From NCBI RefSeq assembly GCF_019097595.1, contig NC_080731.1, forward strand, positions 13,626,071 to 13,690,070: 64,000 bases of DNA, given 5' to 3'. The number at the start of each line of letters is the position of its first letter. Position 1 is the stretch's first letter. A program made the translations under genes and the position numbers. This document shows positions 6,101 to 64,000 of this stretch, in pieces. The stretch is from Hemibagrus wyckioides (lineage: Eukaryota > Chordata > Actinopteri > Siluriformes > Bagridae). The notes beneath the pieces were generated by a model. The model did no database searches. It was not told the DNA's origin and saw only the letters and a program-made list of their open reading frames with translations.

Positions 6101-7669
6101 TCTTTATCATTCATAAAATGAAGCCCTGTGACATGTAAAAGCTGTGAGAACTTACCGCTTTCTGTTCTGATGCAGAAACGCTGCTTAAAGCCTCTGTGGA
6201 AATGGGAGCAGGTGATGACTTCAGGACTGGAACACCCTACATCCACATATCTCTGGCCCTGGATGTTACAGGCATAACACTGCAGCGCATCAGCTACAAA
6301 ACACACAAAATATGCAGTTGTTTTTTGTTTATTTTATTTGCCTAGAAAACCTAATTTGAGTCCAGGTCGTAATCATTTCATATGTTAGGCAATTACAGAA
6401 CATCATCTGGAAGCAGGATGATTAAACTGAATGGGGAAATGTTTTTAATAGATAATAATGCATGTACTGAATTCAGTCCTTGTTCTTATAACACACATTT
6501 CCATGCTCATGCCACAGTTGTTGATAGATCTGCACTATGCACAGTGCAAAAACAAATCCTAACCTGGGGCTGTTTAGCTAATGTTTTAGTGTTTGTGTGT
6601 AATGTAGTGTGGAATGAGAATAGCATAAAACATTACATGTAGGAAAACTTAATATCGTAACCAAAATATATTTGTTGTTATAGAAATGCATTTATTGAAC
6701 TGAACTTAAGGCACAAACCCTATGAATGATCTCATGTAATATTTATTTAACCATGGAGGCACTGCAGTCTAGAGGGTTCTGTTTCTGCTGCACAGGTCCA
6801 AGGTCCTTGGTTCCAATTCAGATTACTGTCAGTGTTTTTCATCTTCTCTTTGGGCATCCCTCAGGTTTTACAGCTTCTTCCCACCTCCCAAAAATGCTGG
6901 TAGGACTGGATGCTCTAAAATTGTCCCTGGTTGTCGGTAAGAAATGTGTGAATGTATGTGTGTATGATGCTCTGTGAGTGACTGCCATCCAGGATTATTC
7001 CCAGTATTCTTAGGATAAACTCCAGGATAAAGCAGATCCTATAGATAAATGAATGGATGAATATAATTCAAACATCCATTTTAAAGAGAGCGCAGCAGAA
7101 ATGTGAACCAATGGGCATTCAACAGTTCCTGTGTTGGTATTGTATAAACATTAACACAATTTGTATAAACATTAACATCTCCATGTGAATGTTGTGGCAA
7201 TGCAACACTTTTCACAAAAAAATATGGCTGTTCAAGGGGTTTTTCTTTCCCTTTCTTTCTGTCTATCTTGTTTTTGCATATATAGACAAGAATAATTCCA
7301 AAACAACAGAGAGCATGCAATTTCTTTTAAATATGTCTGATTTATAATTTACCCACATGTATTGTAAATACAGCAGTAGTCATGATTTGAAAACTATTGT
7401 GCTTTGCATAAACTGTAATTAATGAACACTTCACATAAATAGAAAGAATCGAGTTTAACCCAGTGGAAAAACACACGCACACCTCTCACAAACACTTCAC
7501 GTCTTCTAAATGTTACTCATGTCTCATCAGTGGTCCTGTCTGGAAGAGTCAAGCAAGAGACATACAAACACACCCACGTATAAAACTCACCTCGTGTTAT
7601 AAAAAGTGGCAGCAGTGCCCAGCAGCAGTAGAGTGTGAGTCCATGCAGCAGAGGTGAACAGGGAGACAT
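3002..7669 (-). CDS. Ly6/uPAR-family (LU domain) GPI-anchored surface protein, three exons
   Basis: The spliced reading is exon 1 7591-7669, exon 2 6156-6293 and exon 3 3002-3198, with both introns in phase 1. It gives a 137-residue protein. Exon 1 starts [10 protein letters not shown] and supplies a hydrophobic signal peptide, ending at a good GTGAGT donor. Exon 2 (acceptor TTTTGTAG, donor GTAAG) opens the LU domain with LQCYAC and carries further cysteines ([13 protein letters not shown]). Exon 3 follows a strong polypyrimidine acceptor and ends the domain with the family signature CCDSDLCN. A hydrophobic tail ([15 protein letters not shown]) then suggests a GPI-attachment signal. Cysteine order, length and phase-1 introns all fit single-domain Ly6 proteins, which sit on the outer plasma membrane and bind receptors or proteases. 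I cannot assign an ortholog. The second intron holds a broken Tc1-like transposon in the same orientation. The exon joins are my prediction. Confidence 0.85.
4607..5822 (-). mobile_element. Tc1/mariner-type DNA transposon (degenerate, DD36E spacing)
   Basis: Terminal inverted repeats share the core ATAACATTATGACCAC (left about 4619-4635, right about 5793-5809). The outermost bases and the TA target duplication are not resolved, so the ends are approximate. The minus strand encodes a broken transposase, described separately. The element lies in the intron between exons 2 and 3 of the Ly6-type gene. Confidence 0.85.
4640..5737 (-). pseudogene. Tc1-like transposase, frameshifted
   Basis: Two open stretches on the minus strand carry the two halves. 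5504-5737 holds the N-terminal helix-turn-helix region ([20 protein letters not shown], then a KTAALLGCS recognition helix). 4640-5383 holds the catalytic domain: first Asp in VAWSDKLHF, second in FQQDNAPCH, and Glu in LIENLW. By my count 36 residues separate the second Asp from the Glu, unlike the 34 of classical Tc1, which resembles the DD36E branch of the superfamily. The halves are not in one frame and the linking region is damaged, so no full enzyme can be made. Confidence 0.85.
6156..6293 (-). CDS. Ly6-type gene exon 2 (first half of LU domain)
   Basis: 138 nt, phase 1 to phase 1. It encodes [20 protein letters not shown] and continues through SSPEVITC to CIRTES. The LxCYxC opening of the three-finger fold and the next cysteines are visible. 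The acceptor is preceded by a T-rich tract. Confidence 0.85.
6726..7065 (+). repeat. Degenerate teleost retroposon 3' tail
   Basis: The order of words (a 'gagggttc ... ggttcaattcagat' block, then CACCTCCCAAAAATGCTGGTAGGACTGGAT, a GTGTGTGAATG block, and a final ATGAATGGATGAAT tail) matches a worn copy of a very abundant fish LINE 3' tail. The tail comprises a 'header and exact-date' block, a 'gattggc ... aaattgtcc' block and an ATGAATGAATG terminus. I recognise this from general knowledge of teleost repeats, not from a database search. It sits in the first intron of the Ly6-type gene. Confidence 0.5.
7591..7669 (-). CDS. Ly6-type gene exon 1 (signal peptide)
   Basis: 79 nt from ATG to donor, 26 codons plus one base. 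The frame reads [20 protein letters not shown], followed by a few hydrophobic residues. The exon is too short to stand out as an open frame. It was identified because its phase and its GAG|GTGAGT donor join exactly to exon 2. Another ATG, 22 bases further into the exon, is in a frame that stops early, which favours the ATG used here. Confidence 0.75.
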
Positions 7670-18005: not shown

Positions 18006-18401
18006 ATGGTACGACTTTCTTTAGGGTGCTTTGGGATTTTTAATCTCTTTAATAAAAGGCGTAGGCAAGCCCATTTGAGAGATATGGCAAACCTGGAAGC
18101 TTTGCGCAGAGAGAGATATGAGATAGAGAGAAATCTTGAGCTGATGAATTTGGAGCTTGAGAAAAAGAAAAAGGAGAAGAGGAAGCTTGCTAAGCAGATA
18201 AAGTTACAGAAGGAAGAGAAAAATAGTACACTGTATTGGATCAAAACTAAATGCCTGATAAAAAGAAGAGAAGAAAGGCAGGAGCTTGAAATGCTCAGAG
18301 ACCTGGATTTCCAGCTGAAGCTGGAGGACTTGGAGAGGGCAAGAAAGGAACAGAAAAGGAGAGAGAAAATGGAGAGGAAACATCAGAAAGTACCCAGGAA
18401 G
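18006..18401 (+). CDS. Coiled-coil gene, exon 1
   Basis: 132 codons ending HQKVPRK with a GTAAGA donor at 18402. Codons after residue 20 are dominated by Arg, Glu, Lys and Leu. The last 45 residues are homologous to the whole of exon 2, so exon 2 looks like a partial copy of this exon. A CT-rich tract begins four bases after the donor. Confidence 0.75.
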
Positions 18402-18404
18402 GTA

Positions 18405-18464
<60 letters not shown>

Positions 18465-21400
18465 CTGTCTGTCTCTGTCTGTCTGTTTGTCTGTCTCTCT
18501 CTCTCTCTCTGTGTCTGTCTGTCTGTCTCTCTCTCTCTCCTCAACTGTAATGGAAAAAATTATGGTGAGGATTAAGGCTGCAGTTAATGATTATTTTGAT
18601 AATTGTTTAGACTATTGATTAATTTTAACAGTTACCAAAATAAATAAATTAAAAAAGGATTTCTTTCTAATCATCTAGTATTAATACAGCTACTTCATAT
18701 AGGCTTAATCAAATAACAGATCACTAACATACATTAACATCAGAGGTGGACAAAGTACACAACTTCCTTACTTGAGTGAAAGTACAGATACTACTGGTCA
18801 AACATTACTCCATTACAAGTAAAAGTTGTAAAGACAGATTTTTACTTAAGTAACAGCACAGAAGTACTTGATTTTAAAAGTACTTAAGTATCAAAAGTAA
18901 AAAGTAAATGTCAACGCATTGTTTTATTATATATATATAATAACACAATGTGTTGACATTTACTTTTTGTTAAACAGTGTTTTTATATATACATGGTACT
19001 GTGCAAAAGGCTTAGTTTTAATGACCATCCATACTATTTTCACTCTCTTTACTAATATCCAAGGCCTTCCAGTCCATGCAGTGCAGAGTCAGACACGGTA
19101 TACTGTAGACTACTGCTGCGTAATTCGCCTACTTTTACCACGTACTAAAAGTATGTACTTTTTTGTTTTGGAAAAGTACATACCTTTGAGTGTGTAGCAA
19201 AAGAGTATGCACGTTTTGGGACATACTACGAGGATGTCATATAATGGAAACGAATGTTGTTGCCTAGCTACACACACTCATCATAAACAAAGCATTTCAC
19301 ATTTTATTCATTTTTATTTATCCAATATAATTTACTATTCGCATTTTATGTCAGTTATATATATTTCCACATTTCATTTATACCGTTTTAATATGCATTT
19401 ACACCGTTCTCAAGGCTCCTCCCTCCAGTGTGCAATGCGTTGTGGGCAATATTGCCTATTAGAGTGTGGATCGTTCTGCACTTTGAATTTCTACCGGAAG
19501 TAGTAGCCCATCCGGGAATTTTTGGAATACTCTATTCAGCATACTACGATTTGGGGCATACTAATTCTATTTTCGAATACTATTTAGGACAGATAGTATG
19601 AGAATTTGGACGCAGCTGTAACGATGCTTGCAGAACCAGAGCGCCAGAGGGAGCCATCACCCGAATATTGACATTTGCGAACTCACTTCCTGTCTTACTC
19701 GGGTATTTAAGCAGCACGCTGCCTATTGTTCACTGCGAAGTATTGTTCTCTAAAGTGGATTACGTACCAAGCCTTGTTTATTGTTCCTGATTGCCTGCTA
19801 CGTGTATGATCTTTGCCTGTTACTGTTTTCTACGAGTCTCGGTTTTGCGGTTTTGGTTTCTGTTCGCTAGTTCTTGATTTTCCGGTTTTTGACCCTTTCG
19901 CTTAGCCATATCGATTCCGATTCTTGCCTGCTGTTTTGTGAATAAAGATCTGCATATGGATTCTACTACACCTGCCTCGAGTGCGTCCTTACAGAATACT
20001 TTGCCTTCAGAGAATCCAGCGGATCCTCGTGCAACCTTAGTTCGCCAAGGACATATGATCCGGTTCTACCAGGACCAGGTGGAGGCGTTAAAAGCCACCA
20101 AGGACAACGACAATCTCCCGCCGCAGCTCCAGTTCCGCCTCTGCGCAGTGAATTTCCACACTTCGTACTGCCAGAAAAGTTTGATGGTGCCGCGGATCGA
20201 TGCCGGGGTTTCCTGCGGCAGTGTGACAACTTTTTCACTCAACAGCCGGAGGTATACTGCAGCGATAGCGTCAGATGCGCATTCCTTTTATCTCTGCTGA
20301 CAGGCAAAGCGCTGGATTGGGCTTCGGCTGTGTGGGATTCGGATCCTCAGCTGATTACTTCGCGAAACTGATCAGGGAAGTGTTTGAGTATCCGGCAGGA
20401 GGTAAAGACATTTCTGTCCTATTACTGGAATTACGCCAAGGAACTGATACAGCTGCTGATTTTGAAGTTCCGCACGCTCGCTGCTCAGTCAGGCTGGAAT
20501 GAGGCGGCATTAATAGCGGTGTTTCGGGAAGGACTTACTAGAGAGCTGAAGGCGGAAATGGCGTGCAGAGACACTGATGTTACACTCTCCCAGTACATAT
20601 CCACTGCTATTCGCCTTGACAACCTGCGGCGCCAGCATCGTACTCGCACCCCCACACCTCGTTCCTCAACACGTGGCACTATGGAATACCACAGCCAGAA
20701 GGAGGAAGTCACCGAGCCTATGCAACTGGGGAGGTCACGTGTTTCTGAGGTTGAGCGCGAACGCCGTGTGCAGATGCAGCTGTGCTTCTACTGTGGACAA
20801 CCAGGTCACAGAGTCTTCCAATGCCCAGAGAAGCCTGCCACGTCCCAGAGAGAAGTCATGAAGCTGGTTTCTAAGATTTCGCTTCCTGCCTACGTCCTTC
20901 ACAATGACTCTCGTTTTTTCGTCACAGCGCTGGTTGACTCCGGATCAGCAGTGAACCTGATAGACAGCAACCTGGTCCGTGAGCTCGGCCTATCTACTAT
21001 CCCATGCACTCCGCCGTTAAAAGTCACTGCCATAAATGATCAGCCCATTGGGGAGGGCCTTCTTACTCACCACACACCTCTCATGGAGGTTCAGATTGGA
21101 TTATTTCACAGAGAAAGACTGAGATTTTTCGTTATTTCCTCACCATCAAACCCTGTCGTCCTAGGCCTTCCCTGGCTTCAACTTCATGACCCGGACATTT
21201 CATGGAAGGAGGGGGAATTAAAAAAGTGGTCTACCTTTTGCCTAGAGAACTGTTTTTGCAACCCGATAACCTGTCCATGCCTTTCCACGTCTATCGAAAG
21301 CCCCGAATCATCGCCCCAAGTCACACGCCCTAAAGAATACCAAGATTTCCAAGAGGTCTTCAGTAAAGAAAAGGCCGCCAGATTACCCACACATCAACCC

Positions 21401-24400
21401 TGGGACTGTGCCATTGACCTTCTTCCGAACACCATGCCACCTAAGAATCGTATTTACCCCCTGTCACTTCCTGAAAAGCTTGCTATGGAGGAATATATTG
21501 AAGAAGCCCTTGCAGCTGGATACATCCGCCCGTCTACCTCACCAGCGGCGGCAGGATTCTTCTTCGTAGAAAAGAAGGACGGCGGCCTTCGACCCTGCAT
21601 TGACTTGAAATTGAACGAGCTCAATCGACAGAGGCTCCTCCCCCAACATGTCCACCGACCAAAGTTTATGTACCCACAGGTTTCCAACAAGTGTTACGAT
21701 GGACCCATGAGAGCCTGAGTTCAGGACACCCCGGCACCCGTAGAACCATTCAGCTGGTACGACAAAGATTCTGGTGGCCATCGCTCAACCACGATGTCGA
21801 GGAGTTTATCCGTTCCTGCTCGGTCTGCGCACAGTCCCGAACGAGCCGTCAGCTACCAGAAGGTCTACTTCAACCACTGCCAGTTCCACGCCGACCCTGG
21901 TCTCACATCTCAGTAGACTTTCTCATAGACCTCCCTGTCTCTCAAGGTTTCACCACAGTCATGGTTGTAATCGACTGCTTTTCCAAGTCCTGCAAGTTAA
22001 TCCCCATGAAAGGTCTACCTACTGCCATGGAAACAGCCACAACCATTTTCCAAAACATCTTCCGTCACTATGGTTTACCCGAGGACATTGTTTCTGATCG
22101 CGGCCCACAGTTCACATCTCGTGTGTGGTCGGAGTTTTGCAAACAACTCGGGATCAATGTCAGCCTCAGCTCTGGGTATCACCCCCAGTCCAATGGCCAA
22201 GCGGAGCGGCTTAATGAAGAAATTGGGAGGTTCCTAAGAACATACTGCAGCCGTGAGCAACACCGTTGGAGTGAGTTTCTCCCCTGGGCTGAGTATGCCC
22301 AAAACTCGTTGCACCACTCCTCGACCGGCTTAACTCCCTTCCAATGTGTATTGGGCTATCAACCTCCGCTCTTTCCTTGATCCAGGGAACCCTCGGCTGT
22401 GCCTACAGTTGAAGACTGGTCAAGACGTAGTCAGGAGGTCTGGGAAAGAGCCCATGTTCGTCTCCAGAGAGCGATCCGATGACAAGAGCTCCAAGCTAAC
22501 CGGCGTCGGCGTCCCCACCCAGCTTACCAAGTGGGTCAGAAGGTGTGGCTTTCTACTAGGAATATAAAACTAAAACTTCCTTGTCATAAGTTAAGCCCCA
22601 AGTTTGTTGGCCCATTTAAAATTCTACGCCAAGTTAATCCAGTTTCTTTCCGCCTTGAGCTTCCAGCATCGTATCGTATCTCGCCTACCTTCCATGTGTC
22701 TTTACTCAAGCCCTTCCACGAGCCTCAAACCACCGGCCCCGCTATCACTGAACCTCCCCCATCACTGGACATTGATGGCTCCCTTGCCTACCAGGTGCGC
22801 ACCATCCTGAATTCCCGTCGTCGAGGTGGCCGCCTTCAGTATCTGGTGGATTGGGAGGGTTACGGCCCAGAGGAGCGTTGTTGGGTTAATGCACAGGACA
22901 TTCTCGACCCCTCGCTCACTGAGGAATTCCATCTGAGCTTCCCGAATTGACCTGCTCCTCGTCCACGGGGGCGCCCGCGTCGACAAACACCTGGAGGTGT
23001 TCCTAGAGGGGGGGGTTCTGTAACGATGCTTGCAGAACCAGAGTGCCAGAGGGAGCCATCACCCGAATATTGACATTTGCGAACTCACTTCCTGTCTTAC
23101 TCGGGTATTTTAGCAGCACGCTGCCTATTGTTCACTGCGAAGTATTGTTCTCTCCAGTGGATTACATACCAAACCTTGTTTATTGTTCCTGATTGCCTGC
23201 TATGTGTATGATCTTTGCCTGTTACTGTTTTCTACGAGTCTCGGTTTTGCGGTTTTGGTTTCTGTTCGCTAGTTCTTGATTTTTCCGGTTTTTGACCCTT
23301 TCGCTTAGCCATATCGATTCCGATTCTTGCCTGCCGTTTTGTGAATAAAGATCTGCATATGGATTCTACTACGCCTGCCTCGAGTGCGTCCTTACAGCAG
23401 CAAATGTTTTTGCATGTTAACTAACATCATTACCAAAGCGTTGGTGGTGTATATGCAAAGCTATGACAACTAGGCAAACAAATATGTAAAAAAGAACATT
23501 TGCCTTACCATACATACTTCATGGCACAGGCAATATCAATTTGAAGCTTTTACCAGAAATTAAAAGTATACAAACCTCAATATGCTTCCGCAGGTTGGAT
23601 GGAGAGTTTTTATAGGCTGCAATGTGGTTTGTTTTCGGTAAACAAAGCAAACATTTAAAATGAAAAGGATCTTTACTCTTTGCTAAAAATTGGAACATAA
23701 TGTCTAAGTATGGCCATGGATACGCCGATGATCTGTCTTCATCCATTTTGCCATCAATGGATCAGAGTTCAACAAATGCCGGAAAAACCACTGAACTTCA
23801 CGACACGTGACGCTACAAGAGTGAAAAAAAAAATCATCCTCTGATTAACGTAACTACGTTCTAATCAATGACCTTGCCAGAAATGTAGTGGAGTAAAAAG
23901 TACAATGTTTACCTTTCAAATGTAGTGAAGTTAAAGTAACATGTTTCCAGAAAAAAATAATACTCAAGTAAAGTACAGGTACTCAAAAAGTGTTCTTAAG
24001 TACAGTACTCAAGTAAATGTACTTTTGTTACTGTCCACCTCTGACATTAACATTACTGATATTTACACAATAACAATATTATTATGTATGTAACCAACAT
24101 GAGACATTAAGACAAATGTAAGGTGACAGTACTTTTTTTTTTACTGGTTCTGCCAAGTGCCTTTTTAAACTCTGATTAATTCCATCCACTAAAAATAAAG
24201 GCAAAATAAATATTTACTAGCTGTCTCTCAAACTTGAAATTTAGATAAAGTGTTTGTTTTGCTTGTAGTGTTTGCCTGAGGCCAGTAATTTTGGGTGTGT
24301 GTACTTGACTCAAAATTTTTTGCATTGACTTAAATTTCATTGCTTGGAGTCAGCGAATCGAACATTTTGGGATCGACATTGATATGAACTGAAAGCAGGA

Positions 24401-26996
24401 TGACAACTTTACGCAACACACTATGCATTGTAACCATGTGTTTATTTATACTACTAGGTTGAAGGATAATGCACAGTCAGCATGTAAAAGAAGCCTTTAT
24501 ATAAAGTGTATATAGGATCAGTCTACTGGTTTAAAGCAGGACTGCAGGATTTGTATTTAGAGATATAAATGACTGATATATATGATTCTCTCTATCTTTT
24601 TCAAATTGACATACTAACAAACCAGTGAATATTTTGCATCTTTCATATCTTTTTTCCTTTATTTATTTATTTTTACCTGTGGATATCATAGTCTCGGCAG
24701 GAAAGGCAGCAGCTTGAAAGGCTCAGAGAACTGGATTTTCAGCTGCAGCTGAAAGACCTGGAACTGAAGAGACTAAGGCAGGAACAAAAAAGGCAAGCGA
24801 AAATGCAGAAGAAACACCAGAAGTCATCCAGGAAGGTAAGATATGTAATTATTAACTTATGTAACTATAACGGTAAAATTATGGTGAGCATTAGGGCTGT
24901 CTAACAGAGGTCTGCAGGTTTTGTATTTAGAAATGCTTGGTGCCACCATACTACATCATGGGTATGGTGATCCTAGGGTGATAAACCGTTGTTTAAGAAC
25001 AGTGTTCTTTTTGTGCCTAACATTTTTTGGAATTATGCCACAAAAGTTCTACCTTGGTATCATAAGCCCTTAACACATTTGCCACCAGACAGTTTGATCT
25101 GCCACCTGGGGCAAGGCCATTGATGACAAGGTGTATAAATAGGTCATAATTTTTTGTTTGCTTTTCATTTGTTTTGTTGGTTGCTATATCGTTTTTCAAA
25201 AACCCTGTAATTTTAATTGAGGCTTTTTAATATCCACTATACATTTACACTAGAGGGGAAATTAGCTTTTTCTGCTATCCCATATTTTTACGGAGTCTCA
25301 GGTGGATTGAAATCCTGACCATTTAGTGAAGCTCACCTATTGAGCCAGCACTACCAATAGCATCATTAATAGAAAGGGTCAGGATGGCGGACTGAACAGA
25401 GTGGCATTGAGGCTCTTTCACAGGAGAATTTGCCACTTGTAGAAGACTGTTGCACCGTCCTGTTTATTGCTTGCATTTAATCACATAAAAATATACACTA
25501 TATTGCCAAAAGTATTCGCTCACCCATCCAAATAATCAGAATCAGGTGTTCCAATCACTTCCATGGCCACAGGTGTATAAAATCAAGCACCTAGGCATGC
25601 AGACTGTTTTACAAACATTTGTGAAAGAATGGGTCGCTCTCAGGAGCTCAGTGAATTCCAGCGTGGAACTGTGATAGGATGCCACCTGTGCAACAAATCC
25701 AGTCGTGAAATTTCCTCGCTCCTAAATATTCCACAGTCAACTGTCAGCTGTATTATAAGAACGTGGAAGTGTTTGGGAACGACAGCAACTCAGCCACGAA
25801 GTGGTAGGCCACGTAAACTGACGGAGCGGGGTCAGCGGATGCTGAGGCGCATAGTGCGAAGAGGTCGCCAACTTTCTGCAGAGTCAATCGCTACAGACCT
25901 CCAAACTTCATGTGGCCTTCAGATTAGCTCAAGAACAGTGCGCAGAGAGCTTCATGGAATGGGTTTCCATGGCCGAGCAGCTGCATCCAAGCCATACATC
26001 ACCAAGTGCAATGCAAAGCGTCGGATGCAGTGGTGTAAAGCACGCCGCCACTGGACTCTAGAGCAGTGGAGACGCGTTCTCTGGAGTGACGAATCGCGCT
26101 TCTCCATCTGGCAATCTGATGGACGAGTCTGGGTTTGGCGGTTGCCAGGAGAACGGTACTTGTCTGACTGCATTGTGCCAAGTGTAAAGTTTGGTGGAGG
26201 GGGGATTATGGTGTGGGGTTGTTTTTCAGGAGCTGGGCTTGGCCCCTTAGTTTCAGTGAAAGGAACTCTGAATGCTTCAGCATACCAAGACATTTTGGAC
26301 AATTCCATGCTCCCAACTTTGTGGGAACAGTTTGGAGCTGGCCCCTTCCTCTTCCAACATGACTGTGCACCAGTGCACAAAGCAAGGTCCATAAAGACAT
26401 GGATGACAGAGTCTGGTGTGGATGAACTTGACTGGCCTGCACAGAGTCCTGACCTCAACCCGATAGAACACCTTTGGGATGAATTAGAACGGAGACTGAG
26501 AGCCAGGCCTTCTCGTCCAACATCAGTGTGTGACCTCACAAATGCACTTCTGGAAGAATGGTCAAAAATTCCCATAAACACACTCCTAAACCTTGTGGAC
26601 AGCCTTCCCAGAAGAGTTGAAGCTGTTATAGCTGCAAAGGGTGGACCGACGTCATATTGAACCCTATGGATTAGGAATGGGATGTCACTTAAGTTTATAT
26701 GCGAGTCAAGGCAGGTGAGCGAATACTTTTGGAAATGTAGTGTATCTCTTTTATATTTTAAGCATCACAATGACATTGATAAACAAATGGGGAGTGGTGG
26801 AGGACACAAACAGAGGTTTTAAGCCAGAAGAGTGTGTGTATTTGTGTGTGCAACTGCCGTTAAGCTGAATGGGGATTTCACTTTATACATAGCCACACAT
26901 AACCACAGTATCCTAGTGAGGACTTTTACATGGCATCACTGAATGATACCTAGCAAGCTCTCTCAGATTAGATTCATTCAGATACATTATTCACCC

Positions 26997-27036
<40 letters not shown>

Positions 27037-30000
27037 ACTCTTAGAATAATGTGTTCTCTGTAATATGCACCAGCATTTTAAGTACATGTTTAATCTAAAT
27101 AAAGTTTTGTAGTGCTTGTCATGGTGTGCTTCATAACACAGTTCAACTAATAGCTATTTAACTTCGTAGCCATCTATCACATTTTATACATTTTGTCTAT
27201 TAGTTATAGTCAAAGCTGTTTTATTTGGAGATAAATGTATTTCAAAGATTTATGCATATTTTGTACTAATACATGTACAAATTGAGAAAGTCTTTTTTTT
27301 TAAATACAGGGACTGAGAGAGAGTTATAATAAGTACAGAGTGGAAGACAGCCTGGAAGATATGGAAGAGAAGAGATATACAGAAGATTTTGGAGACAGCC
27401 TGACAGATGAATTGACCTCATCAGAGGAGAGTTTTGCACAGCAACATCAAGAGAAAAGGAAATGTGATGAATACAAGAAAATGGCCATGCTGCAGAACAA
27501 TAGCAATAAGCAGCAAAATGTGACACAGATAGAAATAAAAGAAAAGAATCAGAGGAGGGAGAAGGAACAAAAAAGGCAAGAGATAATGGAGAGGAAACAT
27601 CAGAAAGCATCGAGGGAGGTAAGATATGTGATTATTAACTTATGTAACTATAGTAATAAAATTATGTCGAGCATAAGGGCTGCAGCTAATGATTATTTTG
27701 ATAATTGGTTAATCTATTGAGATTTATTTTGGATTAATCAAAGTCATTAATTAATCAGGTTATTTTTAACAGACACCAAAACGTTTTTAAAAAAGAATTT
27801 CTTTGCAGCATTTCAGTCAACTAGTACTACTACAAGAAGAATTAACTAGGATTAATTGAATCACATATCGCCAGTGTAACATTACGGATATTTATCAGAT
27901 AATCTGTCGGCGCACAGCACAAGTCAGGAGTGTTTATATCAAACCAAAATGACACGTTTTCTGAAAACAATAATAAAGGCAAAATAAATGCTGTATTTGC
28001 TAGATTTCTTGCTAGCTGAAACTCTTAGATGCAGTGTTTATTTTGCTTGTAGTGTTTGCCTGAGCTGAATAATTTTGGCTGTTTTGGAAATACAAAATAA
28101 GTATATGTATACAAAATTTCTAATATAAGCGCATATTTTGTACTAATGTACTAATTGAGAGAGTCTTTTTTTTTAAATACAGGGACTGAGAGAGAGTTAT
28201 AATAAGTACAGAGTGGCCAGCCTGGAAGATATGGAGAAGAAGAAATATATTGAAGATTTTGAAGACAGTCTGACAGATGAGGATCTAGAATGGGAATTGA
28301 CCTCATCAGAGGAGAGTTTTGCACAGCAACATCAAGAGAGGAGTAAACGTGAATACAGGACAGAGATAAAGGAGGGATTAAGAAAGGAGAAAATTCTGCA
28401 GGTAAAGCCAAGGAATAGCGAACTTGCTGCTGAAAAAGAGATGGCAGACGTGAAAAAAATGGCCATGCTGGAGAACAATAGCAATAAGCAGAGAAATGTG
28501 ACACGGATAGAAATAAAAGAAAAGAATCGGAGAACTGAAGAATCACTTCAAGACATCAAGGAACATAAAGAACCTAAACAGGTTTTAGAAACAGATGAGG
28601 GACAGCTTGTGATCCATAAAATGCAGAAGCCAGGGCAGAAACTTGTGGAGAAAAGTAGGGAAATTATGCCAGAGGTGGGGATAACCAAAGAGACAGAAAG
28701 GCACATCTCTGAAGTAAGAGAGAAGGCAAAAGCAGAGACTGAAATTCTGACAGAGAAACGAACAGAGATTAAGACTGAGCAGGAGAAAAGACAGTGGAAG
28801 CTGCTCCAAGAACCGCTCTCAACAATGGAAAAGGAGAAAAATGCAAAAAAGCAGAAATGCAAGTGGATAGAGGTGCAGTCTGGTAAGGAAACACAAGTAA
28901 TGGAAGAAGGAGATATGGCCCTGCTAGAGAAAATGGAGAGAGCAGCAGAGAGCGATAGACAGGACATGGACTGTCAGCTAATGAAAGAGAGACAAATAGA
29001 AGGAGAGTTGCAAATGAACAAGACAGAGATAGAGAGAGAGGAACAGCAAGTAGTAGTGACAGAAGAAGAGGATGATGAATTCTGGGATACAGCAGCCCTG
29101 CCAAAGTCACAGAAGGTTTCACCCAAAAATGAAGAAAGATCTGAAAGAGATGTAGAACTGCAAAGCAGCCAGCTGATAAAAGTAAAGACCTGTGAGAGCC
29201 AGGACATGGAGAGACAGCTGTTGGAAAAAGAAAGACAAGTATCAAAGGAGTCACACTTTCACCAGACTGAGATAGGGAAAGAGAAACAAGAATTGGTCCT
29301 GATGGAGGTAGAGGACGAGGACTTCTGGGATACAGCAGAGCTGCCAAAGTCAGAGAAGGCTTCACCCCAAAATGAAGAAAGATCTGAAAGAGGTGTAGAA
29401 CTGCAAAGCAACCTGGATAAAAAGGTGCAGAGAAAAGAAGAGGTGGTCCTGGAAACTGAGAAGCAAAGACGTGAGGAACAAATAAAAGAAAGACAAGAAA
29501 GACCGTTGACGATTCAAGACATGCAGGATGCAAGACAGAAACATGCAGAAATGGAAAAAAAATGCAAGAAAGAGCTGACGGAAAAGATGCTCTTTCAGAC
29601 AGAGAGCCCAGCATTGCAGAAAAATGTGATATGGGGCAGGAGGAGTGGAAACAGTCACTCAATCCCAGTAAATACGGAACACCATCAGGAAAGCTCTGAA
29701 CAGGGGAAAGAACATCAGAAGCATGTGGGAAGAAACCGTCATCTGAACACAATGAAGGAGGGAATAAAGTCTGTGCTACAGGAGTTGGACTGCCCGAAAG
29801 TGATGGATGGACTCCAATTAAAAGGAACAGAAGAGGTAATTAACAAACAGCTGATAAAAGTAAATACCTTTGAGAGACTGGACGTGGAGAGACAGCTGTT
29901 GGAAAAAGAAAGACAAGTAACAAAGGAGTCAAAATTTCACCAGACAGAGATAGGGAAAGAGAAACAAGAATTGGTCCTGATGGAGGTAGAGGACGAGGAC

Positions 30001-31632
30001 TTCTGGGATACAGCAGAGCTGCCAAAGTCAGAGAAGGCTTCACCCCAAAATGAAGAAAGATCTGAAAGAGGTGTAGAACTGCAAAGCAACCTGGATAAAA
30101 AGGTGCAGAGAAAAGAAGAGGTGGTCCTGGAAACTGAGAAGCAAAGACGTGAGGAACAAATAAAAGAAAGACAAGAAAGACCGTTGACGATTCAAGACAT
30201 GCAGGATGCAAGACAGAAACATGCAGAAATGGAAAAAAAATGCAAGAAAGAGCTGACGGAAAAGATGCTCTTTCAGACAGAGAGCCCAGCATTGCAGAAA
30301 AATGTGATATGGGGCAGGAGGAGTGGAAACAGTCACTCAATCCCAGTAAATACGGAACACCATCAGGAAAGCTCTGAACAGGGGAAAGAACATCAGAAGC
30401 ATGTGGGAAGAAACCGTCATCTGAACACAATGAAGGAGGGAATAAAGTCTGTGCTACAGGAGTTGGACTGCCCGAAAGTGATGGATGGACTCCAATTAAA
30501 AGGAACAGAAGAGGTAATTAACAAACAGCTGATAAAAGTAAATACCTTTGAGAGACTGGACGTGGAGAGACAGCTGTTGGAAAAAGAAAGACAAGTAACA
30601 AAGGAGTCAAAATTTCACCAGACAGAGATAGGGAAAGAGAAACAAGAATTGGTCCTGATGGAGGTAGAGGACGAGGACTTCTGGGATACAGCAGAGCTGC
30701 CAAAGTCAGAGAAGGCTTCACCCCAAAATGAAGAAAGATCTGAAAGAGGTGTAGAACTGAAACATGCAGAAATGGAAAAAAAATGCAAGAAAGAGCTGAC
30801 GGAAAAGATGCTCTTTCAGACAGAGAGCCCAGCATTGCAGAAAAATGTGATATGGGGCAGGAGGAGTGGAAACAGTCCCTTAATCCCAGTAAATACGGAA
30901 CACCATCAGGAAAGCTCTGAACAGGGGAAAGAACATCAGAAGCATGTGGGAAGAAACCGTCATCTGGACACAATGAAGGAGGGAATAAAGTCTGTGCTAC
31001 AGGAGTTGGACTGCCCGAAAGTGATGGATGGACTCCAATTAAAAGGAACAGAAGAGGTAATTAACAAACAGCTGATAAAAGTAAATACCTTTGAGAGACT
31101 GGACGTGGAGAGACAGCTGTTGGAAAAAGAAAGACAAGTAACAAAGGACTCAAAATTTCACCAGACTGAGAAGGGGAAAGAGAAACAAGAATTGGTCCTG
31201 ATGGAGGTAGAGGACGAGGACTTCTGGGATACAGCAGAGCTGCCAAAGTCAGAGAAGGCTTCACCCCAAAATGGGAGAAGATCTGAAAGAGGTGTAGAAC
31301 TGAAACATGCAGAAATGGAAAGAAACTGCAAGAAAGAGCTGACGGAAAAGATGCTCTTTCAGACAGAGAGCCCAGCATTGCAGAAAAATGTGATATGGGG
31401 CAGGAGGAGTGGAAACAGTCCCTTAATCCCAGTAAATACGGAACACCATCAGGAAAGCTCTGAACAGGGGAAAGAACATCAGAAGCATGTGGGAAGAAAC
31501 CGTCATCTGGACACAATGAAGGAGGGAATAAAGTCTGTGCTGCAGGACACAAGACAGAAAAATTCAGAAATGCAAAACAAACAGGAGCTGTGGCAGAAGC
31601 TGTTCTCTCAGTCAGTGAGCACATCATTGTGA
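18006..31632 (+). CDS. Unnamed long charged coiled-coil protein with internal 226-residue repeats
   Basis: Predicted coding exons are 18006-18401, 24692-24835, 27310-27618 and 28183-31632, all joined in phase 0. This gives about 1432 residues. The ATG has a good context (A at -3, G at +4). After a short hydrophobic opening ([15 protein letters not shown]) and an NKRRRQ basic patch, the protein is almost all Glu, Lys, Arg and Gln heptad-like sequence, predicting long coiled coils or single alpha-helices. It has no enzyme domain and I recognise no family member. Exons 1 and 2 end in homologous stretches ([18 protein letters not shown] versus [18 protein letters not shown]), and exons 3 and 4 both begin [11 protein letters not shown]. 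The last exon holds tandem repeats, each with an [16 protein letters not shown] motif. Its function is unknown; a cytoskeletal or scaffold role is only a guess. Near-identity of the repeats with an open frame suggests the frame is maintained. Confidence 0.7.
18406..18540 (+). repeat. CT / CTGT microsatellite next to a splice donor
   Basis: Long (CT)n with interspersed TGTC blocks, starting only four bases after the exon 1 donor. Any read-through translation of it is an artefact of the intron. Confidence 0.95.
18899..18968. repeat. Near-perfect 35-bp inverted repeat (hairpin)
   Basis: Arms 18899-18933 and 18934-18968 are reverse complements with two mismatches and no loop spacer. The centre is ATATATAT. 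It lies in the left part of the hAT element. Confidence 0.9.
19115..19616. mobile_element. MITE-like repeat with GCTGCG ends inside the hAT element
   Basis: The block opens GCTGCGTAATTCGCC and ends with the inverted GGACGCAGC. Internal words (TATGTACTTTTTTG, GGGACATACTACGAGG, GGGCATACTAATTC) are typical of a high-copy teleost DNA repeat that I recognise but cannot name. Its last five bases became the target duplication of the LTR element. Its own target duplication is not resolved. Confidence 0.5.
19617..19993 (+). repeat. 5' LTR of the chromovirus
   Basis: 377 bp. It contains a TATA-like GTATTTAAG near 19703 and an AATAAA signal near 19941. By eye it differs from the 3' LTR at about nine positions plus one single-base indel. 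Confidence 0.9.
19938..22950 (+). pseudogene. Chromovirus gag-pol remnant
   Basis: The gag start is in a frame that shifts near 20110 and again near 20384. From 20384 to 21718 one frame carries late gag, the zinc knuckle [14 protein letters not shown], the protease motif [13 protein letters not shown] and the opening of reverse transcriptase ([18 protein letters not shown]). At about 21630 it runs into unrelated joining sequence where the catalytic core is deleted. The integrase follows in another frame (21691-22380): a zinc-binding HHCC region, then a D-D-E core with SDRGPQFTS and NGQAERLNE. After two stops the C-terminal part (22531-22950) ends in a chromodomain ([18 protein letters not shown]). 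Nonfunctional as it stands. Confidence 0.85.
23019..23396 (+). repeat. 3' LTR of the chromovirus
   Basis: 378 bp, nearly identical to the 5' LTR. The TATA-like word is altered (TATTTTAG). It is preceded by the polypurine run GAGGGGGGGG near 23007-23015. Confidence 0.9.
23519..23746 (-). pseudogene. hAT transposase fragment with BED zinc finger
   Basis: A 75-residue frame carries [18 protein letters not shown] and SNLRKHIE. This is the Cys-x2-Cys ... His-x-x-x-His spacing of the BED finger that opens hAT transposases. The rest of the enzyme, including the catalytic and dimerisation regions, is absent from the element. The fragment alone could at most bind DNA. Confidence 0.7.
24692..24835 (+). 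CDS. Coiled-coil gene, exon 2 (duplicated cassette)
   Basis: 48 codons, phase 0 at both ends, from [11 protein letters not shown] to KKHQKSSRK. It is too short to appear as a long frame. It was found by similarity to the end of exon 1, by a TTTTTACCTG...CATAG acceptor and by a donor followed by the same intron sequence (GTAAGATATGTAATTATTAAC) as follows exon 3. It could be skipped without changing frame. Confidence 0.75.
25496..26742 (+). mobile_element. Tc1/mariner transposon, complete
   Basis: The element starts CACTATATTGCCAAAAGTATTCGCTCACC and ends with the inverted GGTGAGCGAATACTTTTGGAAATGTAGTG. It is flanked on both sides by TA. At 1247 bp, with one uninterrupted transposase gene, it has the size and layout of an intact Tc1-family element. 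It lies in the intron between exons 2 and 3 of the coiled-coil gene, in the same orientation. Confidence 0.92.
25629..26660 (+). CDS. Tc1-family transposase, full length (343 residues)
   Basis: It cuts and pastes the surrounding transposon into TA sites in the nucleus. The N-terminus has paired helix-turn-helix motifs ([18 protein letters not shown], then [19 protein letters not shown]). The [10 protein letters not shown] hook lies between the two DNA-binding domains at about residue 60, and a second HTH ([20 protein letters not shown]) follows. The catalytic DDE residues are visible: Asp in VLWSDESRF, Asp in [11 protein letters not shown], and Glu in [10 protein letters not shown], with 34 residues between the last two. 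The [12 protein letters not shown] glycine box is present. The length is typical of Tc1 enzymes. No stop or frameshift is present, which is uncommon among fish Tc1 copies. Activity is not shown by sequence alone. Confidence 0.93.
26997..27035. repeat. ATT microsatellite
   Basis: Perfect (ATT)n tract in the intron before exon 3 of the coiled-coil gene. Confidence 0.95.
27310..27618 (+). CDS. Coiled-coil gene, exon 3 (duplicated cassette)
   Basis: 103 codons, phase 0 at both ends, opening [20 protein letters not shown] and ending [13 protein letters not shown]. Its first half matches the start of exon 4. Its tail ([19 protein letters not shown]) matches the tails of exons 1 and 2. It therefore looks like a compact version of exon 4's start fused to the end of exons 1 and 2. 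The flanking introns are also duplicated. Confidence 0.8.
28183..31632 (+). CDS. Coiled-coil gene, exon 4 with the internal repeat array
   Basis: 1149 codons, open throughout. It opens [20 protein letters not shown], then runs through unique charged sequence to about 29169. Repeat copies start at 29170, 29848, 30526 and 31069, with an older divergent half-unit before them. The frame ends TSL-stop at 31630-31632. Sequence after the stop is a decayed further repeat unit. The open minus-strand frames across the array are mirror artefacts of the repeat. Confidence 0.8.
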   Translation, partial: GLRESYNKYRVASLEDMEKKKYIEDFEDSLTDEDLEWELTSSEESFAQQHQERSKREYRTEIKEGLRKEKILQVKPRNSELAAEKEMADVKKMAMLENNSNKQRNVTRIEIKEKNRRTEESLQDIKEHKEPKQVLETDEGQLVIHKMQKPGQKLVEKSREIMPEVGITKETERHISEVREKAKAETEILTEKRTEIKTEQEKRQWKLLQEPLSTMEKEKNAKKQKCKWIEVQSGKETQVMEEGDMALLEKMERAAESDRQDMDCQLMKERQIEGELQMNKTEIEREEQQVVVTEEEDDEFWDTAALPKSQKVSPKNEERSERDVELQSSQLIKVKTCESQDMERQLLEKERQVSKESHFHQTEIGKEKQELVLMEVEDEDFWDTAELPKSEKASPQNEERSERGVELQSNLDKKVQRKEEVVLETEKQRREEQIKERQERPLTIQDMQDARQKHAEMEKKCKKELTEKMLFQTESPALQKNVIWGRRSGNSHSIPVNTEHHQESSEQGKEHQKHVGRNRHLNTMKEGIKSVLQELDCPKVMDGLQLKGTEEVINKQLIKVNTFERLDVERQLLEKERQVTKESKFHQTEIGKEKQELVLMEVEDEDFWDTAELPKSEKASPQNEERSERGVELQSNLDKKVQRKEEVVLETEKQRREEQIKERQERPLTIQDMQDARQKHAEMEKKCKKELTEKMLFQTESPALQKNVIWGRRSGNSHSIPVNTEHHQESSEQGKEHQKHVGRNRHLNTMKEGIKSVLQELDCPKVMDGLQLKGTEEVINKQLIKVNTFERLDVERQLLEKERQVTKESKFHQTEIGKEKQELVLMEVEDEDFWDTAELPKSEKASPQNEERSERGVELKHAEMEKKCKKELTEKMLFQTESPALQKNVIWGRRSGNSPLIPVNTEHHQESSEQGKEHQKHVGRNRHLDTMKEGIKSVLQELDCPKVMDGLQLKGTEEVINKQLIKVNTFERLDVERQLLEKERQVTKDSKFHQTEKGKEKQELVLMEVEDEDFWDTAELPKSEKASPQNGRRSERGVELKHAEMERNCKKELTEKMLFQTESPALQKNVIWGRRSGNSPLIPVNTEHHQESSEQGKEHQKHVGRNRHLDTMKEGIKSVLQDTRQKNSEMQNKQELWQKLFSQSVSTSL
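29170..31545 (+). repeat. Intra-exonic tandem repeat, 678/678/543 bp units
   Basis: Four copies begin at the codons QLIKV at 29170, 29848, 30526 and 31069. The first two periods are 678 bp (226 codons). The third copy is 543 bp, having lost exactly 135 bp (45 codons, QSNLDKK to QDARQ). The fourth has the same loss and breaks off near 31545. Copies 1 and 2 differ only in about the first 110 bases. Copies 2 and 3 look identical by eye outside the deletion and a few substitutions near its end. All length changes are multiples of three. Confidence 0.9.
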
Positions 31633-32200
31633 GAAGAGAAACAGAAAGGGCTAGTGACAGGAGGAAATATCGTGGACAATGCTAGAGCATCTCTGAGACG
31701 CTAAAAGCCTACCAAAGCCTGGGGATATTCAGAAAAGTTTACCCAGACATGAAGAAAAATCTGAAATAAATAAAGAACAACAAATTAATCTGAATGAAAT
31801 GATCCTGAGAAAAGAAGGATACACAAGACAGAAACATGCAGAAATGCAAAAAAACAAAAAACAAACCATGATGCAGAAGCTCTTCCCTCAGTCAGTGAGC
31901 CCATCATTGTGAGAAGAGAAACAGAAAGGGCTACTGACAGAACAACTCGATGGAGATAGCTGTGACCTTATGAGTAAGTTTTTGTCCACTTTTCACTGTA
32001 ATATCAAATATTTTTCAAAAGAAATACATTCTTACCGTACCAACATACCTGATTCTCAACTCATCCTTTACCTAAACAGGAACTACTCGTCAATGTGTAA
32101 CTGAGGCAGCAATTCACGAGCAAAAAAGAGAGGAACTGTATGAGAAAGAGAAAAAAAGGAGCTTATGTCCTGCTGGAGAACTTGGGAAAACAACTTGAAA
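31633..32200 (+). other. 3' end of the coiled-coil gene: decayed repeat unit and possible last exon
   Basis: After the stop, the sequence GAGAAGAGAAACAGAAAGGGCTA occurs twice (31633 and 31911). Each copy is preceded by the same TCATTGTGA. Between them is a worn, frame-broken copy of the repeat unit. A donor-like CTTATGA|GTAAGT (31975/31976) and an acceptor TACCTAAACAG at 32080 join in a consistent phase. They lead to an open stretch TRQCVTEAAIHEQKREELYE ending GELGKTT-stop at about 32200. This may be a true last exon in another isoform, or an ancestral one now lying in the 3' UTR. Confidence 0.4.
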
Positions 32201-35390: not shown

Positions 35391-35563
35391 GTAGTTACAA
35401 TGCTATAGTAATCAGTACGCTCGCACGGATGTTGCCTGTATGATTCATGCAGACTGAGGACGAGTACACGGGAAGCTTACCCGAGCTCCCATTGTTTTAT
35501 GCAGCGAGAGAGAACAACCATCGGCTCAGTTGTGAGATTTCCCGTGTGAGCTCACTGCATGAT

Positions 35564-36277
35564 GCTCATGGCGTGGTGCTCATGGTGTGATGCTCATGGC
35601 GGGGTGCTCATGGCGGGGTGCTCATGGCGTGGTGCTCATGGCGTGGTGCTCATGGCGTGGTGCTCATGGCGGGGTGCTCATGGCGTGGTGCTCATGGCGG
35701 GGTGCTCATGGCGGGGTGCTCATGGCGGGGTGCTCATGGCGGGGTGCTCATGGAGGGGTGCTCATGGCGTGGTGCTCATGGCGTGGTGCTCATGGCGGGG
35801 TGCTCATGGCGTGGTGCTCATGGCGTGGTGCTCATGGCGGGGTGCTCATGGCGTGGTGCTCATGGCGTGGTGCTCATGGCGTGGTGCTCATGGCGTGGTG
35901 CTCATGGCGGGGTGCTCATGGCGTGGTGCTCATGGCGTGGTGCTCATGGCGTGGTGCTCATGGCGTGGTGCTCATGGCGGGGTGCTCATGGCGGGGTGCT
36001 CATGGCGGGGTGCTCATGGCGTGGTGCTCATGGCGTGGTGCTCATGGCGTGGTGCTCATGGCGTGGTGCTCATGGCGGGGTGCTCATGGCGTGGTGCTCA
36101 TGGCGTGGTGCTCATGGCGGGGTGCTCATGGCGTGGTGCTCATGGCGTGGTGCTCATGGCGGGGTGCTCATGGCGTGGTGCTCATGGCGGGGTGCTCATG
36201 GCGGGGTGCTCATGGCGTGGTGCTCATGGCGGGGTGCTCATGGTGGGGTGCTCATGGTGTGGTGCTCATGGTGTGGT
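35564..36277 (+). repeat. 14-bp minisatellite, 51 units
   Basis: The unit is GCTCATGGCGTGGT, and 714 bp contain exactly 51 units with no length change. By my count 27 units have T at position 11, 19 have G, and five have other changes (35578, 35746 and the last three). Since 14 is not a multiple of three, all three plus-strand frames stay open and give MAWCSWRGAHG-type sequences. These are not proteins. Confidence 0.97.
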
Positions 36278-36897
36278 GCTCGTCTTGCAAGTTATCACTT
36301 GTTAACCAAGTTAAATTTTATTACAATTTTTTGCTCGTCTTGCAAAGCACGTTACTTGCAATCCAGGGTTCCACTTTATTCTTTTTTCTTCACTTTCTCT
36401 AAAGTAATAACAAATTTGATACATTTTTCTTCATGTTTTCATTTAGAGTTGAATGCGCAGTGTTCCCAGTGCATTTGCATGTATTGAAATAAAAGTTATA
36501 AGGATTTTGAGATTTACTCACTTTAACACACTGCTATTATTTTGAACACAACTGTAGGTAGTTTTTAACATCAGTAGAATCATTGAAAAAGAGAGTGAGA
36601 TGCAGTGTAACAGTAATTCAGTACATTACATTAAAGTAGTAAAGCATTAAGTGAAGCACAAAAACCCTTGTAAACTGCACACAGACTTTACATGTTTTCC
36701 CACTTTGTCTGAATACTCAAGTCCAGGTTTGTCTTGACTTTCAAGAATTCCTTCCAAATTTAGCAAACAATTCCAAACTTTTGAGCAGTTTTTATTATAT
36801 TCCTGTGGTACTAATATGCAAGAGGGGGAAACTGTAAACTGTTACTGCTTCTATGATTTTATTTTTGGTGTTTACCTACTTTTTTTTTATCTTATAA

Positions 36898-56905: not shown

Positions 56906-64000
<7,095 letters not shown>

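What the first reader, a model, noticed from the sequence alone, without database searches (positions are those of the whole stretch)
18006..31632. An unnamed gene built by duplication at three scales
Exon 2 repeats the end of exon 1. Exon 4 begins as a copy of exon 3, including flanking intron bases (GCATATTTTGTACTAATG...TTTAAATACAG before both). Exon 4 then contains its own tandem repeats. All coding exons are phase 0, so every duplication keeps the frame. I recognise no homolog. This may be a fast-evolving lineage-specific gene, or a family known only as 'uncharacterized' or 'trichohyalin-like' in fish annotations.
Basis: partly seen in the sequence, partly recalled or inferred. Interest (0 to 1): 0.75.

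Follow-up and report, generated by a model that had tools for sequence, protein, structure and literature searches.

The report
Catfish gene grown by internal duplication
This looks like a real but uncharacterised catfish gene for a long, highly charged protein that grew by copying its own pieces at least three times, and its relatives in other catfish seem to have copied different pieces of the same region.

Summary
The four-exon model at 18006-31632 gives an uninterrupted 1,432-residue protein with GT-AG, phase-0 junctions, and all three layers of duplication are far beyond chance. The window lies on a contig of the same length as the one holding Hemibagrus wyckioides protein KOW79_018224, which matches this gene at 100% but starts inside exon 3. 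Exons 1-2 are supported by two Tachysurus proteins named "golgin subfamily A member 6-like protein 22". One reading is probably reversed: exon 3 looks like the copy. It is a chimera of exon 4 head and exon 1/2 tail, and both Tachysurus models hold the head only once. The Clarias model also holds the exon 1 tail only once, suggesting stepwise growth. C-terminal arrays differ by genus (offsets 226/181, 65 and 63 residues). One locus was found in the genome. No Pfam domain was found, so golgin or trichohyalin membership is unsupported. Cellular function is unknown; a charged rod or linker is my best guess. It is a new, informative member of a known kind: fast-evolving, internally repeated, apparently lineage-restricted genes.

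The parts
18006..18401 (+). Exon 1, coding (132 codons): conserved N-terminus (LGCFG motif) and charged tail
   Evidence: Open frame and splice donor; T. ichikawai P0002 residues 1-132 align at 71% identity
18271..18401 (+). Exon 1 tail, source or sister copy of exon 2
   Evidence: 81% of 131 aligned bases to 24699-24835, one 6-nt gap; dS 0.79, dN 0.19 over 46 codons
18408..18539 (+). TC-rich microsatellite just inside the intron 1 donor
19616..23397 (+). LTR retroelement in intron 1 (flanking repeats 19616-19994 and 23018-23397, 97.4% alike); not part of the gene
   Evidence: rve, Integrase_H2C2, zf-CCHC, protease matches in two separate open pieces
24692..24835 (+). Exon 2, coding (48 codons), duplicate of the exon 1 tail
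   Evidence: P0002 residues 134-181 align at 60%
24836..24899 (+). Start of intron 2, shared with start of intron 3
   Evidence: 87.5% over 64 nt to 27619-27682
25485..26754 (+). Tc1-like transposon in intron 2 (open piece 25581-26660); not part of the gene
   Evidence: inverted ends 25485-25524/26714-26754; HTH_Tnp_Tc3_2 and DDE_3
27310..27618 (+). Exon 3, coding (103 codons), chimeric copy
   Evidence: 27310-27554 matches the exon 4 head (91.7% of 242 aligned bases); 27563-27618 matches exon 1 tail (85.7%) and exon 2 tail (83.9%); Tachysurus and Clarias models hold the head once
28183..31632 (+). Exon 4, coding (1,149 codons plus stop)
   Evidence: contained in deposited protein P0001
28954..29169 (+). 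Array unit 0 (old, diverged copy)
   Evidence: 79% of 216 aligned bases to unit 1; dS 0.34
29170..29847 (+). Array unit 1 (678 nt)
   Evidence: 98.7% to unit 2
29848..30525 (+). Array unit 2 (678 nt)
   Evidence: 99.4% of 543 aligned bases to unit 3
30526..31068 (+). Array unit 3 (543 nt, lacks 135 nt = 45 codons)
31069..31547 (+). Array unit 4, followed by the terminal segment and TGA stop at 31630-31632
   Evidence: 97.7% of 479 bases to unit 3
31633..31945 (+). Decayed former C-terminal coding sequence past the stop
   Evidence: tblastn matches to T. ichikawai residues 589-654 and 654-765 in another frame, with stops

Best explanation
It is a functional protein-coding gene, found so far only in catfish, whose product is a long E/K/Q/R/L-rich and probably mostly helical rod or linker protein. 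It has a short conserved hydrophobic, cysteine-bearing N-terminus and a C-terminal array that carries a repeated aromatic-acidic segment (FWD...LPKSE). The gene grew by successive tandem duplications whose ends fell inside exons, all keeping the frame. First, the exon 1 tail plus intron was copied, giving exon 2, before Hemibagrus and Tachysurus separated. Second, in the Hemibagrus line, a block from within the exon 2 (or exon 1) tail through the intron into exon 4 was copied, which fused exon 4 head to that tail and made exon 3. Third, and most recently, 226- and 181-residue units inside exon 4 were multiplied, while the older C-terminus fell behind a stop and decayed. Shown: the duplications, their frame, their rough relative ages, and which of the deposited protein models of related catfish carry them. 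Inferred: the order of events, one event rather than two for exon 3, function under selection, and the rod or multivalent-linker role (weakly supported).
For: Open 1,432-codon frame over four phase-0 exons. The best-linked matches of T. ichikawai P0002 fall on exons 1, 2 and 4 in order (residues 1-132, 134-181, 185-766); P0004 the same; Clarias P0003 on exon 1 tail (25-87) and exon 4 (89-614). Residues 185-298 of P0002 also match exon 3 (37%), as a paralog would, but P0002 has that stretch once. Ages fall in steps: dS 0.79 for exon 1 tail/exon 2, 0.16-0.21 for exon 3/4 head, 0-0.04 between units 1-4. All 7 of 7 gaps between exonic copies are multiples of 3 (6 of 6 if two neighbouring gaps are one event), against 3 of 9 between intronic copies. 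Exon 1 tail/exon 2 differ at 13 of 26.6 synonymous but 19 of 111.4 nonsynonymous sites, Fisher p 0.0016 on rounded counts. Internal control: no stop in 1,432 codons, but 3 stops in a 210-nt match past the stop, which lies in another frame. One locus: 9 of 9 protein matches and 5 of 5 DNA matches lie here.
Against: No transcript data were available. The deposited Hemibagrus model omits exons 1-2. The two halves of exon 3 do not look equally old: head vs exon 4 is 91.7% alike, tail only 83.9% to exon 2 and 85.7% to exon 1 (56 bases), and the tail gives dS 0.39 to exon 2 and 0.82 to exon 1 on 13-14 synonymous sites; so the tail's source is ambiguous and a single event is not proven. Outside its two ends intron 2 gave no match to intron 3. 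Exon 3/4 head (Fisher p 0.15) and the recent units (8 nonsynonymous to 1 synonymous, 3 to 0, 7.5 to 3.5) show no clear purifying selection. The amphipathic periodicity test was negative in 6 of 6 segments (88 to 281 of 300 shuffles reached the observed value), so a regular coiled coil is not supported. No structure prediction was obtained. Single copies in Tachysurus and Clarias rest on three predicted proteins, not on their DNA.
Confidence: 0.7

Rival explanations
1. A gene on its way out in Hemibagrus: the frame is still open, but constraint is gone, and the C-terminus has already been lost.
For: Stop at 31630 followed by a decayed coding relic; recent units show no deficit of nonsynonymous change; two mobile elements and a microsatellite sit in its introns; deposited model lacks exons 1-2.
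Against: No stop in 1,432 codons while a 210-nt match past the stop has three; splice sites intact; N-terminal 132 residues 71% identical to T. ichikawai.
Confidence: 0.15
2. A member of the golgin A6 family, as the Tachysurus annotation says, acting at the Golgi.
For: The name given to P0002 and P0004.
Against: No Pfam family at E 0.01 in P0002, P0004 or P0003 and none above its curated cut-off in pieces of the Hemibagrus product; no other golgin among the listed hits of three protein searches. The name probably reflects shared charged composition (inference).
Confidence: 0.03
3. A trichohyalin-like (S100 fused-type) epithelial structural protein.
Against: No S100/EF-hand domain by Pfam in exon 1 or in the exon 1-3 product; gene architecture differs (recalled).
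Confidence: 0.04
4. The high-identity units in exon 4 are partly an assembly artefact, so the true copy number differs.
For: Neighbouring units 1-2 and 2-3 are 98.7% and 99.4% alike.
Against: The published assembly of this species was made from PacBio HiFi reads (passages of PMC8546334), which should span a 2.5 kb array; units 3 and 4 share a 135-nt deletion that units 1 and 2 lack.
Confidence: 0.08

Closest known systems
Tachysurus 'golgin subfamily A member 6-like protein 22' (P0002 T. ichikawai, P0004 T. fulvidraco)
   Same: Same N-terminus, exon 1 tail and exon 2 stretches, exon 4 head and core; 71% (P0002) and 63% (P0004) identity over exon 1
   Different: The exon 3/4 head is present once; array of a different 65-residue slice; 814 and 732 residues instead of 1,432
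Clarias gariepinus uncharacterized protein (P0003, Hap1MRO34_023325)
   Same: Exon 1 tail joined to exon 4-like head and core; shares the module around IQQMQEP
   Different: Exon 1 tail and exon 4 head present once each; its own 63-residue array; model starts downstream of the conserved N-terminus
Internally repeated fast-evolving structural genes such as involucrin, filaggrin, trichohyalin (all recalled)
   Same: Large last exon with in-frame tandem units that differ between lineages
   Different: No S100/EF-hand match; otherwise not compared here
Intragenic duplication, e.g. the sole dmrt1 case (PMC7605655), and sub-exonic repeat variation as in MUC7 (PMC4997351)
   Same: Same general mutational classes, judged from titles and abstract starts in search listings only
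   Different: Here three layers of different age in one gene, with a chimeric exon that preserves a breakpoint

Membership tests
Orthologous group of the catfish gene (P0001, P0002, P0003, P0004) | Colinear similarity along the protein | tested here: met
   P0001 100% over 86% of the product; P0002 and P0004 colinear over exons 1, 2, 4; P0003 over exon 1 tail and exon 4
Orthologous group of the catfish gene (P0001, P0002, P0003, P0004) | Same chromosomal position in each species | not testable with these tools
   No DNA of Tachysurus or Clarias available
Golgin A6 family | Match to a golgin A profile domain | tested here: not met
   Pfam: none at E 0.01 in P0002, P0004, P0003; none above cut-off in pieces of the Hemibagrus product or in P0001
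Golgin A6 family | Golgi localisation | not testable with these tools
   Needs an experiment
Trichohyalin / S100 fused-type proteins | N-terminal S100 EF-hand domain | tested here: not met
   No Pfam match in exon 1 at E 1 or in the exon 1-3 product at E 10, within HMMER's filters
Regular coiled-coil rod proteins | Heptad-like hydrophobic periodicity | tested here: inconclusive
   Amphipathic power at 3.5-3.6 residues no better than shuffles in 6 of 6 segments; a crude home-made test, no dedicated predictor and no structure model
Lineage-restricted, internally repeated coding genes (a class, not a family) | In-frame recent tandem units | tested here: met
   Neighbouring young units 97.7-99.4% alike, in frame
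Lineage-restricted, internally repeated coding genes (a class, not a family) | No homolog outside a clade | tested here: inconclusive
   Catfish only in three searches, each capped at about 8,000 scored candidates

The most novel reading that the evidence does not exclude
An orphan catfish gene in which a fixed, conserved N-terminal anchor carries a C-terminal region that each genus rebuilds independently by amplifying a different slice of the same ancestral sequence, while the exon count also grows stepwise (two, three, four coding exons in the Clarias, Tachysurus and Hemibagrus states as inferred from protein models) by duplications that fuse neighbouring exons. It would be a compact natural series for watching exons be born, and repeat length may be the selected trait.
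Probability: 0.3. Interest if true: 0.5.

Novelty: new member of a known kind. Interest (0 to 1): 0.36.

Why it matters
The gene preserves duplications of clearly different age in one frame, including a chimeric exon whose junction can be placed to within about 10 bases and a decayed former C-terminus that serves as a built-in control. Its catfish relatives appear to hold earlier stages of the same series. It also shows that the deposited Hemibagrus gene model lacks two coding exons and that the 'golgin' name in Tachysurus is not supported by domain searches.

Tried and rejected
Golgin A6 and trichohyalin membership: no supporting domain (NCBIfam, a bacterial and archaeal library, also empty). 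Sub-threshold Pfam matches in exon 4 (DUF6590 E 0.089, WHD_ROQ1 E 0.11) were set aside as below their cut-offs. Solved-structure searches gave nothing significant (best E 0.27; best E 0.79). A regular coiled coil: my periodicity test was negative. A paralog cluster: no tblastn match to P0002, P0003 or the product in 190 kb of flanks, and the two genome searches listed only this locus (both score only the best candidates). A known RNA family in the region: no Rfam match at gathering score in 10000-40000. My first script used an exon 1 start one base off; corrected. A self-BLASTP for repeats printed no rows and was replaced by a windowed comparison. The long output of the intron comparison was cut, so one of its seven pairs (intron 1 left vs intron 2 left) was seen only in part; intron 1 right vs either side of intron 2 scored below shuffles there. 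Papers: no paper of the library held both 'golgin subfamily a member' and 'tachysurus' or 'golgin' and 'fulvidraco'; the other searches showed nothing on this gene in their listings. The channel catfish paper found by 'golgin subfamily' speaks of golgin B1 (two passages).

Full report
Identity of the source. A DNA search placed the window at G000:C22:13626071-13690070 in an assembly of 789,723,933 bases; contig C22 is 23,013,735 bases long. The best protein hit, KOW79_018224 of Hemibagrus wyckioides (P0001, 1,235 residues), sits on a contig of exactly that length and matches the product at 100% over 86% of it. The genome paper of this red-tail catfish reports a 789.8 Mb assembly from PacBio HiFi reads (passages of PMC8546334). 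The deposited protein begins at residue 198 of the four-exon product, inside exon 3, so it lacks exons 1 and 2.

The gene model. ATG at 18006, exons 18006-18401, 24692-24835, 27310-27618 and 28183-31632, all introns GT-AG, all exon lengths multiples of three, giving 1,432 residues without a stop. The product is 17% E, 13% K, 9% L, 9% Q and 8% R. Exons 1 and 2 are supported by T. ichikawai P0002: residues 1-132 align to 18006-18404 at 71% and 134-181 to exon 2 at 60%; T. fulvidraco P0004 does the same at 63% and 58%.

The duplications. (a) Exon 2 and the exon 1 tail: 81% of 131 aligned bases, one 6-nt gap, dS 0.79, dN 0.19. (b) Exon 3 is a chimera. Its first 245 bases match the exon 4 head (91.7% of 242 aligned bases, with gaps of 3, 15, 78 and 15; the last two flank a short match and may be one event), and its last 56 bases match the tails of exon 1 (85.7%) and exon 2 (83.9%); the following 64 intron bases match the start of intron 2 (87.5%). 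The fusion lies within about 27555-27562. One tandem duplication running from inside the exon 2 tail, through intron 2, into exon 4 would produce this arrangement and would explain why introns 2 and 3 share both their starts and their ends (last 52 aligned bases 96%). Two facts sit badly with that simple account. The tail half of exon 3 is less similar to its possible sources than the head half is to exon 4, and its exonic part is slightly closer to exon 1 than to exon 2; with 56 bases this may be noise, or there were two events. And outside its ends intron 2 gave no match to intron 3, whereas introns 1 and 3 match inside (82% of 143 and of 108 aligned bases); I infer that intron 2 lost or replaced its interior later, and a Tc1-like element now sits there. 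(c) Exon 4 holds an old diverged unit (28954-29169) and four young ones (starting 29170, 29848, 30526, 31069), two of 678 nt and two lacking 135 nt; neighbouring young units are 97.7-99.4% alike. Ages by dS: 0.79, then 0.16-0.21, then 0-0.04, with 0.34 for the old unit; the small number of sites makes each value rough.

Evidence that it is coding and constrained. Gaps between exonic copies: 7 of 7 multiples of three; between intronic copies: 3 of 9. Exon 1 tail/exon 2: synonymous change exceeds nonsynonymous, Fisher p 0.0016; exon 3/4: p 0.15, not significant. Young units: 8 nonsynonymous to 1 synonymous, 3 to 0, and 7.5 to 3.5, so no constraint is visible there. A built-in control is the stretch past the TGA at 31630: it aligns to T. 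ichikawai residues 589-654 and 654-765 in another frame, and the genome search counts 2 TGA and 1 TAG within its 210-nt match, while the 1,432-codon frame has none. Hemibagrus has therefore lost C-terminal sequence that Tachysurus keeps.

Comparison with relatives. The best-linked matches of the two Tachysurus models (2 of 2) run exon 1, exon 2, exon 4. Both also match exon 3 more weakly, as expected of a paralog, but hold that stretch only once. The Clarias model (1 of 1) runs exon 1 tail directly into exon 4, with weaker alternative matches to exons 2 and 3, and a windowed self-comparison finds no N-terminal repeat in it; the exon 1 tail/exon 2 repeat is above threshold in Hemibagrus and T. 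ichikawai but not in T. fulvidraco. The simplest order is two coding exons, then three, then four, but only predicted proteins were available. The same self-comparison shows C-terminal arrays in all four proteins compared, with different offsets: 226 and 181 in Hemibagrus, 65 in both Tachysurus, 63 in Clarias. The Clarias array multiplies a module that Hemibagrus has in its two longer units and T. ichikawai has once. The 4 Clarias copies found by pattern are 47-65% alike among themselves and 24-38% alike to the bagrid copies, while Hemibagrus and T. ichikawai are 68% alike; T. fulvidraco had no copy matching my pattern and is not in that count. Tachysurus instead multiplies a stretch around LPKSEDIQN. 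So each genus amplified a different slice.

Copy number and surroundings. All 9 listed matches of P0002 and all 5 of exon 3 DNA in the own genome lie at this locus; 190 kb of flanks hold none. Downstream the window has exons of a noelin gene (Pfam Noelin-1, E 1e-15), which I take for olfm1; upstream flank ORFs look like rxra and brd3, downstream ones like lrrc8a and ptgs1 (recognised by eye, not searched).

Function. Pfam gives no domain above cut-off in the four deposited proteins or in pieces of the product. The N-terminus (LGCFG.FN.F.K.RRQ..LRDM..LE.LRRER) is conserved between Hemibagrus and Tachysurus; the Clarias model starts further in. In the six segments tested P+G is 0-2% within residues 20-345 and 4-7% later, and 39-56% of residues are charged, but hydrophobic periodicity is not above shuffles in any. 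I favour a charged helical rod or linker with an N-terminal anchor and a C-terminal array of short binding segments; this is inference, perhaps 30% likely in detail.

Limits. Three protein searches were available, each scoring only about 8,000 candidates among many low-complexity word matches, so relatives outside catfish may have been missed. In search 2 even P0003, a member of the query alignment, was not listed. Transcripts and other fish genomes were out of reach, and no structure could be predicted.

Noticed in passing
window 19616-23397: LTR retroelement with rve/Integrase_H2C2/zf-CCHC matches inside intron 1, flanking repeats 97.4% alike
   Followed up: partly
window 25485-26754: Tc1-like transposon with a 359-codon stop-to-stop open piece inside intron 2; very similar pieces recur in the right flank
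   Followed up: partly
window 35563-36281: Tandem array of a 14-bp unit, 51 copies, 95% matches, open in all three forward frames over nearly its whole length
   Followed up: no
window 31974 and 32079: A donor-like GTAAGT at 31974 and an acceptor-like CAG ending at 32079 lie past the stop; if still used, the stop codon would precede a junction, which could expose the transcript to nonsense-mediated decay (seen by eye)
   Followed up: no
window 6150-6290, minus strand: Possible Ly6-type exon (LQCYAC...), no Pfam match at E 0.01
   Followed up: partly
window 61250-63308: Exons of an olfactomedin/noelin gene, probably olfm1 (one open piece has a Noelin-1 match; the rest by eye)
   Followed up: partly
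P0004 C-terminus: T. fulvidraco model diverges abruptly from T. ichikawai after ...NEEQIKER, as if frameshifted or differently spliced
   Followed up: no
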